A stretch of DNA of 64,000 bases, from the NCBI GenBank assembly GCA_027488755.1, contig JAIYAZ010000075.1:128492-192491 (forward strand), written 5' to 3'. A program made the translations under genes and the position numbers. Below, one piece after another: positions 42,982 through 44,877 of this stretch; the first letter of the stretch is position 1; every line of letters starts with the position of its first letter. This stretch comes from Verrucomicrobiaceae bacterium. GTDB lineage: Bacteria; Verrucomicrobiota; Verrucomicrobiia; Chthoniobacterales; JAATET01. A model generated the notes under the pieces. The model did no database searches. It was given only the letters and a program-made list of their open reading frames with translations, and was not told the origin of the DNA.

Positions 42982-44877
42982 ATGGGCACCTCCACCTCCT
43001 CGCTTCCCCGCTGGTTCGCCACCCTCCTCTGGGGCAACTCCGTCGCCCTATCCTGGATGTGGGGCCTCGGCCTCTTCTTCTCCGTCCAGTTCACGACGCA
43101 GTTCGGCCTCTTCGGCCTGCTCACCTTCGCGATCCCGAACTTCATCGGCCTCATGGCCTTCGGGCTCATCACCCAGCACATCGCGAACCGCCACAAGGGC
43201 AAGGGCTCCGAAGCCCTAGCCAGCTTCTTCGTGAGCTGGTCGCGCCCCTTCCGGCTCATCTTCTTCCTCTACCAGATTCTCGCGATCACCCTCACCATCT
43301 TCGCGATCATCCACTACGTCTGGCAGCCCCTCGGCCTTGAGCCCCAGGTCCTCTACCTCCCCCTCACCCTCCTCATCGTCCTCGCCGCCGCCGTCCTCTT
43401 CGGTGAGGAGTTCAACATCAAGCGCATCAAATACAGCCACGGCGCGCTCTTCCTCCTCCTCGCCGCGGCCATCGCCGTCCTCGTGCTCGGTGCCCCCGGC
43501 ATGCCCTCGGTCTCCGAAAAAACCCTGCCCACCCTCCCCGTCTCCGGCTGGGATTTCTGGGGCTACGTCGTCCCCATCATCATCGGCTTCCTCGTCGGCC
43601 CCTGGCTCGACCTCCAGCAATGGCAGCGCGCCATCCAGATGCACCGCGAGCGCGTCTCCGTCGGCTGGGGTTACGTCTTCGGCAGCCTGGAGTTTTTCGC
43701 CCTCCTCCTCTTCCACGGCGGCCTCACCCTCTGGGCCCAGGGCAAGGGCGCCAGCGAGTTCATCCGCGAAGGCCTCGCCGGCTACACTTACGGGCAGGAC
43801 ATGCTCATGCGCTACTTCTTCGAGAACATCACCTCCCACCCCGTGATGTTCATCGCCTACTGCGTCTTCGTCTGCGTCTGCATCCTCACCACGCTCGACA
43901 GCGGTTACATCGCCCTCCGCTGGTTCCTCCAGTCGAACGTCAACACGAGCAACCACGCCATCTTCTCCCTCATCCCCACCCGGCTCGTCACCTCCCCCAT
44001 CCCGATCTACCTCTTCTGCGGCATCGTCGCCCTCGCCGCCGCCGTCCTCGGCCTCGAGCTCGAGTATTTCATGATCTTCTTCGCGACCTTCCTCGTTGGC
44101 TACGAGGCCCTCGGCATCGCCCGCTGCTACGTCTTCAGCCCCGCCAACGCCATCCCGCAGGTGAAGATGTTCTGCATCGGCTCCGTCGCCGTCGTCATCT
44201 TCGCCTTCGGCTACTTCCTCCACCAGCCCGCCCTCCAGATCATCGGCTCGCTCCTCCCCCTCGGTTACGTCCTCTGGCTGCTCATCAAACCCACCTCCGC
44301 CGAGGACTTCGTCTCCCAGGCCGACGAACTCGAATCCCCCGCGAACACCGCCGCCGCCCGCCCCGCCGAGCCCGGCACCATGGCCCCCTCGCCGGTCATC
44401 CCCTCGCCCGCCAGCCACCCCGTCGCCGCAGCCGCCGCCGCCCTCGGCATCCACGACCTCACCGGCCACTTCGAGGGCAAGTGGTTCATCCACCAGTTCG
44501 TCGCCACCTACGCCGACACCAACTCCGTCGGCAACGTCTACTTCGGCATGTATGCCATGTGGGTCGGCAAAACCCGCGAGCTCTTCTTCAACAAGGTGAT
44601 GCCCAAGTTCAACCTCAAGGACACCCCCTTCTACATCCTCACCCGCTCTTTCGAGCACAAGTTCGTCCGCGAGACCCGCGAGTTCGAAGCCGTCAGCGTT
44701 CGCATCAAGATCGCCAGCTTCAACCGCAAATTCGTCACCCTCGCCCACGAAATCTACGACTCCCAGCAGCAGCTCCTCGGCAAAGGCCAGCAGAGCCTCC
44801 TCTTCGTCTCCTCGTCCGACTACCACATGATCGACATCCCGCCCGACGTCTACGCCGCCTTCGTCGTGCACACGTAG
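42982..44877 (+). CDS. Polytopic permease (SSS-like) fused to a hotdog thioesterase domain
   Basis: 631 aa from the ATG at 42982 (a GTG at 42925 is less likely). Residues 1 to about 460 form some 11 or 12 membrane spans, weakly like sodium-solute symporters (GPWLDLQQWQRAIQ, CILTTLDSGYIALRWFLQ). After a Pro/Ala linker (about 465-488), residues about 495-628 are a single hotdog domain: YADTNSVGNVYFGMYAMW and VGKTRELFF match the thioesterases of enediyne polyketide pathways (pattern NSVGNVYFxxYxxWxGxxRExF). I know of no such fusion. A membrane carrier plus thioesterase might take up, trap or release acyl esters. Three bases separate it from the next gene. Confidence 0.75.
   Translation: MGTSTSSLPRWFATLLWGNSVALSWMWGLGLFFSVQFTTQFGLFGLLTFAIPNFIGLMAFGLITQHIANRHKGKGSEALASFFVSWSRPFRLIFFLYQILAITLTIFAIIHYVWQPLGLEPQVLYLPLTLLIVLAAAVLFGEEFNIKRIKYSHGALFLLLAAAIAVLVLGAPGMPSVSEKTLPTLPVSGWDFWGYVVPIIIGFLVGPWLDLQQWQRAIQMHRERVSVGWGYVFGSLEFFALLLFHGGLTLWAQGKGASEFIREGLAGYTYGQDMLMRYFFENITSHPVMFIAYCVFVCVCILTTLDSGYIALRWFLQSNVNTSNHAIFSLIPTRLVTSPIPIYLFCGIVALAAAVLGLELEYFMIFFATFLVGYEALGIARCYVFSPANAIPQVKMFCIGSVAVVIFAFGYFLHQPALQIIGSLLPLGYVLWLLIKPTSAEDFVSQADELESPANTAAARPAEPGTMAPSPVIPSPASHPVAAAAAALGIHDLTGHFEGKWFIHQFVATYADTNSVGNVYFGMYAMWVGKTRELFFNKVMPKFNLKDTPFYILTRSFEHKFVRETREFEAVSVRIKIASFNRKFVTLAHEIYDSQQQLLGKGQQSLLFVSSSDYHMIDIPPDVYAAFVVHT

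What the first reader, a model, noticed from the sequence alone, without database searches (positions are those of the whole stretch)
42982..44877. Membrane permease fused to an enediyne-type hotdog thioesterase
One open frame carries about a dozen spans and, after a Pro/Ala linker, a full hotdog domain with DTNSVGNVYF-x-x-Y-x-x-W and RELFF, the pattern of the thioesterases of enediyne polyketide pathways. No stop or frame change separates the parts. A carrier joined to a thioesterase suggests transport linked to hydrolysis of an acyl ester.
Basis: partly seen in the sequence, partly recalled or inferred. Interest (0 to 1): 0.7.

Follow-up and report, generated by a model that had tools for sequence, protein, structure and literature searches.

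The report
Transporter fused to a thioesterase
A single bacterial gene, kept intact across many Verrucomicrobiota and also present in the laboratory bacterium Methylorubrum extorquens, welds an unclassified membrane transporter (built like human choline and sugar carriers) to an enzyme domain that normally cuts acyl thioesters; what the pair carries and cuts is unknown, but it can be tested.

Summary
Window 42982-44877 (+) encodes one 631-aa protein: a 12-helix membrane domain (residues ~10-440), a variable disordered linker (441-494) and a complete hotdog domain (495-630). The fusion is not an error. It is continuous in all 80 relatives inspected in Verrucomicrobiota (49-85% identity), apart from one internal stop in the permease of one MAG and two contig ends, and in Methylorubrum extorquens AM1 (33% end to end). 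The hotdog is closest in sequence and fold to enediyne polyene thioesterases (EspE7, CalE7, DynE7, SgcE10) and keeps their Asn/Arg/Glu site. It is nevertheless a separate clade, with no polyketide synthase beside it. The membrane domain matches no Pfam or NCBIfam family. Its AlphaFold model (pLDDT 86.9) is a LeuT fold nearest solute/sodium symporters (CHT1 Z 31, DUR3 Z 29.5) and carries a CHT1-type Na2/Na3 motif (TTxDS). A distant stand-alone version in another class lies directly behind, and overlaps, a gene for what is probably a different hotdog protein, which independently suggests a carrier-hotdog partnership. Best reading: a cytoplasmic thioesterase tethered to a cation-coupled carrier. 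Substrate and coupling are inferred. An enediyne role is not supported.

The parts
42982..44877 (+). whole fusion gene, 631 aa plus stop
   Evidence: open frame; full-length homologues in 80 loci and Methylorubrum
43009..44301 (+). membrane domain, residues 10-440: 12 TM, LeuT fold nearest SSS/SLC5, predicted N-in/C-in
   Evidence: AF2 of the domain alone pLDDT 86.9, pTM 0.88; VIA Z 31.2 CHT1 and 29.5 DUR3; hydropathy and charge profile; no Pfam or NCBIfam family
43054..43071 (+). TM1 motif W25-x-W27-G-L-G30, counterpart of the unwound TM1 joint of SSS carriers
   Evidence: W25, W27, G28, L29, G30 invariant in A4 including Methylorubrum; near CHT1 W62-VGGGY by fold ranges
43597..43632 (+). TM6 motif GPWLDLQQWQRA (206-217); D-x4-Q-R as in SSS proteins (e.g. 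TDQDMVQR)
   Evidence: alignment A4; SSS proteins of relatives
43888..43902 (+). TM8 motif T303-T304-L-D306-S307, same spacing as CHT1 Na2/Na3 residues S346-S347-x-D349-S350
   Evidence: alignment A4, [ST]T-x-DS in all 21 rows; CHT1 residues from PMC11589582
44302..44463 (+). variable Pro/Ala-rich linker, residues 441-494
   Evidence: pLDDT <50 over 441-491; 23% mean identity
44464..44871 (+). C-terminal hotdog thioesterase domain, residues 495-630
   Evidence: 4HBT_2 E 2.6e-9; PDB 5vpj E 2.8e-12, EspE7, CalE7, DynE7, SgcE10; Foldseek TMt 0.8
44515..44562 (+). active-site helix start DTNSVGNVYFGMYAMW (512-527); N514 where YbgC has the catalytic Asp
   Evidence: alignment with enediyne TEs and YbgC; N514 aligns with CalE7 N19
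44575..44589 (+). RELFF (532-536); R532 aligns with CalE7 R37 and with the residue changed to Ala in the EspE7 R35A structure

Best explanation
It is a membrane-tethered acyl-thioesterase built onto a cation-coupled carrier. Shown: one polypeptide; the membrane part has a LeuT/SSS-type fold and a CHT1-like Na2/Na3 motif on TM8; the hotdog has the catalytic constellation of the enediyne-type thioesterases. Inferred: both ends of the membrane part face the cytoplasm, so the hotdog meets intracellular acyl-CoA or acyl-carrier-protein thioesters; hotdogs dimerise or tetramerise, which would gather the carriers; the carrier moves the free acid, or a solute exchanged for it, that the hotdog releases from, or recycles out of, its thioester, so that flux across the membrane and the thioester pool are handled by one particle. 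Direction of transport and the substrates are not shown.
For: The fusion is kept across orders and in two phyla. The site N514, Y524, R532 and E533 is invariant in 52 Verrucomicrobiota sequences and N514, R532 and E533 are kept in Methylorubrum and L092. The fold match to SSS carriers covers ~405 residues at Z 25-31, against ~330-370 at Z 21-24 for other LeuT folds. The TM8 TTxDS motif has CHT1 Na2/Na3 spacing. Predicted N-in/C-in topology puts the hotdog in the cytoplasm. A distant stand-alone homologue of the membrane domain (hhalign E 8e-9) overlaps by its start codon an upstream gene for a probable, different hotdog protein, so the same kind of partner was probably acquired twice.
Against: No substrate evidence for either half. 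No conserved gene neighbourhood outside the genus. The membrane domain is not recognised by the SSF profile, and profile comparison with 12 SSS proteins of relatives gave no signal. Catalytic residues alone do not prove activity. The model's active-site loop 514-519 has low confidence. The hotdog nature of the second partner rests on profile comparison (probability 76-81%) without a structure.
Confidence: 0.45

Rival explanations
1. Transceptor: the hotdog is a sensor, not mainly an enzyme. It binds an acyl-CoA or acyl-ACP, changes its oligomeric or induced-fit state and gates the carrier (or reports carrier state), as the cytoplasmic modules of CbrA-type SSS fusions are joined to transport.
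For: SSS domains fused to cytoplasmic signalling modules are an established kind (PMC7918813). A dynemicin TE structure entry is titled for induced-fit and allosteric effects upon polyene binding. The linker is long and variable.
Against: The full catalytic set (N514, Y524, R532, E533) is conserved; a pure sensor could lose it. No kinase or other output domain is present.
Confidence: 0.25
2. Anchor: the membrane domain only holds a thioesterase at the membrane, where lipid or carrier-bound acyl chains are made; transport is lost or secondary.
For: The hotdog is more conserved than the membrane part (77% against 61%). The sequence is far from all SSS families.
Against: TM1, TM6 and TM8 motifs at the ion and substrate positions are the most conserved parts of the membrane domain, down to Methylorubrum; a plain anchor would not keep them.
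Confidence: 0.18
3. Release enzyme of a polyene or aryl-polyene polyketide pathway with a built-in exporter.
For: Nearest solved hotdogs release ACP-bound polyenes. The own genome has a separate contig stretch with two ketosynthase-type genes side by side (L144).
Against: No PKS beside the fusion in the window. 5 of 9 fusion-bearing genomes, including small ones of 1.7-2.6 Mb, lack a strong match to the second ketosynthase-type gene. Fused hotdogs form their own clade.
Confidence: 0.07
4. Assembly or gene-calling artefact joining two neighbouring genes.
For: Assemblies in this phylum are mostly MAGs; one relative (L074) has an in-frame stop, but inside the permease.
Against: No stop or frame change at the joint in the loci inspected, in L092 or in the finished Methylorubrum megaplasmid.
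Confidence: 0.01

Closest known systems
Enediyne/polyene hotdog thioesterases (CalE7, DynE7, SgcE10, EspE7)
   Same: Best sequence and fold matches (E down to 2.8e-12; Foldseek TMt ~0.8); ETN/DTN..GNVY..Y..W.G..RE site with Asn in place of the YbgC Asp.
   Different: Known members are small and mostly stand-alone, next to an iterative type I PKS (Streptomyces and S. meliloti loci L177, L179, L180, L184, L127). This one is fused to a carrier, has no PKS beside it and forms a separate clade with conserved ILTRSFEHKF and NRKF stretches.
Solute/sodium symporters (SSS, SLC5: CHT1, DUR3, SGLT, SiaT, NIS)
   Same: LeuT fold over ~405 residues with the highest Z; TM6 D-x4-QR and TM8 [ST]T-x-DS motifs.
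   Different: No Pfam SSF hit; 12 TM predicted and no counterpart of TM0, so N-in instead of N-out; ~10% identity.
SLC5/STAC sensor kinases (CbrA, CrbS/MxtR)
   Same: Architecture principle: symporter-type domain with cytoplasmic C-terminal functional modules in one chain.
   Different: The C-terminal module is an enzyme-type hotdog; no STAC, PAS or kinase domain was matched.
YbgC/FadM-type acyl-CoA thioesterases and MenI (DHNA-CoA thioesterase)
   Same: Hotdog superfamily; weak NCBIfam hits (MenI_Staph 30 bits, YbgC/FadM 25.6 bits).
   Different: Far below cut-offs; the catalytic Asp of ADTD is Asn; the YbgC clade is separate in the tree (100/100).

Membership tests
Enediyne polyene thioesterases (CalE7 type) | hotdog fold of the 4HBT class | tested here: met
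   Pfam 4HBT_2 38 bits; Foldseek to 5vpj, CalE7, SgcE10 TMt ~0.8
Enediyne polyene thioesterases (CalE7 type) | Asn (not Asp) and Arg-Glu at the active site, ETN/DTN...WQGxCRE | tested here: met
   N514, R532, E533 align with CalE7 N19, R37, E38. That N19 and R37 are the catalytic pair of CalE7 is from memory; the CalE7 paper was not held.
Enediyne polyene thioesterases (CalE7 type) | falls within the clade of enediyne-cluster TEs | tested here: inconclusive
   Fused hotdogs are one side of a branch (100/99); the join to other enediyne-type TEs has weak support 44/74 and long branches
Enediyne polyene thioesterases (CalE7 type) | encoded beside an iterative type I PKS | tested here: not met
   Window neighbours are GT2, L,D-transpeptidase-like, lipoprotein, IMPase, ispF, cysS (names by inspection). 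No gene other than the fusion itself is shared by most relative loci.
Enediyne polyene thioesterases (CalE7 type) | releases ACP-bound polyene | not testable with these tools
   needs an enzyme assay
SSS / SLC5 symporters | LeuT fold nearest SSS structures | tested here: met
   CHT1 Z 31.2 (405 aligned, 3.8 A), DUR3 Z 29.5; other LeuT folds at most 24.4 with fewer aligned residues
SSS / SLC5 symporters | Pfam SSF / NCBIfam profile match | tested here: not met
   no match in 52 sequences; hhalign with 12 SSS proteins no signal
SSS / SLC5 symporters | 13 TM with an extra first helix (TM0) and N-terminus outside | tested here: not met
   12 TM predicted, alignment begins at CHT1 residue 47-50
SSS / SLC5 symporters | Na2 hydroxyl pair on TM8 | tested here: met
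   T303/T304 with D306/S307, spacing of CHT1 S346/S347/D349/S350; motif match, not ion binding
SSS / SLC5 symporters | Na+-coupled solute uptake | not testable with these tools
   needs transport assay
SLC5/STAC sensor kinases | STAC, PAS and histidine-kinase domains after the symporter | tested here: not met
   only hotdog models match the full protein
YbgC acyl-CoA thioesterases | YbgC model score and catalytic Asp | tested here: not met
   23.1 bits against cut-off 141; Asn at that position

The most novel reading that the evidence does not exclude
A new family of LeuT-fold carriers whose defining partner is a hotdog thioesterase, fused in Verrucomicrobiota and Methylorubrum and encoded by an overlapping gene in another class, coupling solute transport to thioester turnover: a transport enzyme in which CoA- or ACP-thioester hydrolysis sets the flux or gating of a secondary carrier.
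Probability: 0.3. Interest if true: 0.8.

Novelty: new variant of a known kind. Interest (0 to 1): 0.55.

Why it matters
Both parents are known kinds, but I found no curated family for the membrane half and no report of a carrier-thioesterase fusion in the papers searched. If transport and thioester cleavage are coupled, this would be a direct link between a secondary carrier and the CoA/acyl pool. The Methylorubrum extorquens AM1 copy puts it in a genetically tractable laboratory bacterium.

Tried and rejected
Rejected: sequencing or assembly fusion (80 loci plus a finished plasmid); enediyne pathway member (no PKS, separate clade); obligate link to the ketosynthase pair of the own genome (absent in 5 of 9 fusion genomes). 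Led nowhere: sequence search of the PDB with the membrane-domain profile (0 hits); viral contigs with A1 and A2; phages; PADLOC; Pfam/NCBIfam/PDB for the second hotdog candidate. PF14539 (DUF4442) gave no clear match to that partner, yet hhalign with PaaI/DUF4442 proteins gave 76-81% against <2% for controls (that alignment contains some wrong-frame rows). A quaternary-ammonium substrate was considered from W25/W27 and W208 (CHT1 cage W62, W254): only a lead, since QR-anchored alignment puts D210, not W208, at CHT1 W254. A MenI role was considered (weak NCBIfam hit) and not pursued. Genomes outside the phylum could not be surveyed, and the structure of the second partner was not predicted because its loci are outside that tool's stated input.

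Full report
The gene. Window 42982-44877 (+) is a single open frame of 631 codons. It is single-copy in its genome. Sequence neighbours are a GT2 glycosyltransferase, an L,D-transpeptidase-like protein, a lipoprotein, an inositol monophosphatase, ispF and cysS (named by inspection). They are shared only within the genus. Across 82 loci no gene other than the fusion itself (and its shadow frames) is shared by most.

The fusion is real and old. A scan of species genomes returned 139 relatives; the 80 kept are all matched across both domains at 49-85% identity. In the extracted frames the joint is never broken. The only internal stop seen (L074) lies in the permease, and L049 and L064 end with their contigs. 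In a sample of 387 genomes of the phylum, 9 carry the fusion, the most distant at 42% (L092). A tblastn search of plasmids found a full-length homologue in Methylorubrum extorquens AM1 (NC_012811.1), 33% identical end to end and 55% in the hotdog. The joint there is continuous too. In the phylum sample, hotdog-only hits were no closer than ~26%. Mean identity to the window is 61% (membrane), 23% (linker) and 77% (hotdog).

The hotdog. Pfam 4HBT_2 matches above its cut-off. The nearest PDB sequences are Actinomadura thioesterase 5vpj, EspE7, CalE7, DynE7 and SgcE10, and the predicted fold ranks the same proteins first. The site DTN..GNVYF..Y..W.G..RE is shared with enediyne TEs. YbgC proteins of the same phylum have ADTD..GVVYY..Y..YFER instead. 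N514, R532 and E533 align with CalE7 N19, R37 and E38; the R was mutated in the EspE7 R35A structure. That these residues are catalytic in CalE7 is from memory, since the paper was not held. In a tree, all fused hotdogs including Methylorubrum are one group (100/99) and YbgC is another (100/100). The attachment to enediyne TEs is weak and long-branched. Genuine stand-alone TEs in the collections sit directly behind type I PKS genes (L127). The fusion does not.

The membrane domain. It matches no Pfam or NCBIfam family and no PDB sequence by profile. AlphaFold of the domain alone is good (pLDDT 86.9, pTM 0.88). VIA-align gives SSS/SLC5 carriers first: CHT1 Z 31.2 over 405 residues, DUR3 29.5, then SGLT, SiaT, NIS and SMCT1 at 22-24. 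Nramp and NSS structures also score 22-24 but over fewer residues (whole-protein model). So the LeuT fold is firm and SSS is the nearest group, but sequence membership in SSF failed. The predicted protein has 12 helices, lacks TM0, and its charge pattern puts both ends inside; this is inference. The most conserved stretches are those of an SSS carrier's core: TM1 W-x-W-G-L-G, TM6 D-x4-Q-R (as TDQDMVQR in SSS proteins of relatives) and TM8 [ST]T-x-DS. The last has the exact spacing of CHT1 S346, S347 (Na2) and D349, S350 (Na3) described in PMC11589582. These are kept in Methylorubrum, apart from Q215, which is R there.

A second partnership. Eight genomes of another class carry a stand-alone homologue of the membrane domain (~395 aa; hhalign E 8e-9 over 356 columns). 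In the six loci read out it directly follows, usually overlapping by the start codon, a ~200-aa gene (one locus is cut at its end). That gene has no library match, but profile comparison with PaaI/DUF4442 hotdog proteins gave 76-81% probability, E 1-2e-5, against <2% for controls. If right, the same carrier family took up two different hotdogs, one by fusion and one by operon. I treat this as support, not proof.

Function. Shown: architecture, conservation, fold, conserved active-site and ion-site motifs. Inferred: cytoplasmic hotdog; catalytic activity on CoA or ACP thioesters; cation coupling; functional coupling of the halves. The fusion does not follow the ketosynthase pair seen elsewhere in the own genome: of the 9 fusion genomes only 4 have a strong match to it. 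A general acyl or organic-acid role is therefore likelier than a polyketide one. The main rival is a transceptor in which the hotdog senses acyl thioesters, by analogy with SLC5/STAC kinases (PMC7918813).

Verdict. It is a new variant of a known kind (a symporter-type domain fused to a cytoplasmic module), with an unclassified membrane family and a testable copy in a laboratory bacterium.

Noticed in passing
L094 869-2649, L096 994-2810 and equivalents in L095, L097, L103, L110: Overlapping two-gene unit in another class of the phylum: a ~200-aa probable hotdog protein with no library match, then a ~395-aa stand-alone relative of the fusion's membrane domain.
   Followed up: partly
L126 8004-9827 (Methylorubrum extorquens AM1 megaplasmid NC_012811.1): Full-length fusion homologue in an alphaproteobacterium; about 6 kb downstream lie LuxR-like and LuxI-like genes (by inspection), probably unrelated.
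   Followed up: partly
L144 6992-15510 (own genome, contig C13): Two adjacent ketosynthase-type genes followed by FAD-oxidoreductase-like, LpxL-like acyltransferase-like and ligase-like genes: looks like an aryl-polyene-type cluster (names by inspection; only the ketosynthase match is from a profile).
   Followed up: partly
L127 22-5438 (Sinorhizobium meliloti T073 plasmid psymA): Type I PKS frame directly followed by a stand-alone enediyne-type hotdog thioesterase.
   Followed up: no
L182 1-3441 (Gloeothece verrucosa plasmid): Enediyne-type hotdog fused to the C-terminus of a PKS/SDR protein: another fusion use of this hotdog group.
   Followed up: no
L074 5992-7869: Fusion homologue with one in-frame stop in the permease part; MAG error or pseudogene.
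   Followed up: no
L048, L060: Contigs filed as Proteobacteria and Paceibacterota carry typical Verrucomicrobiota versions of the fusion, probably mis-binned or mis-named.
   Followed up: no
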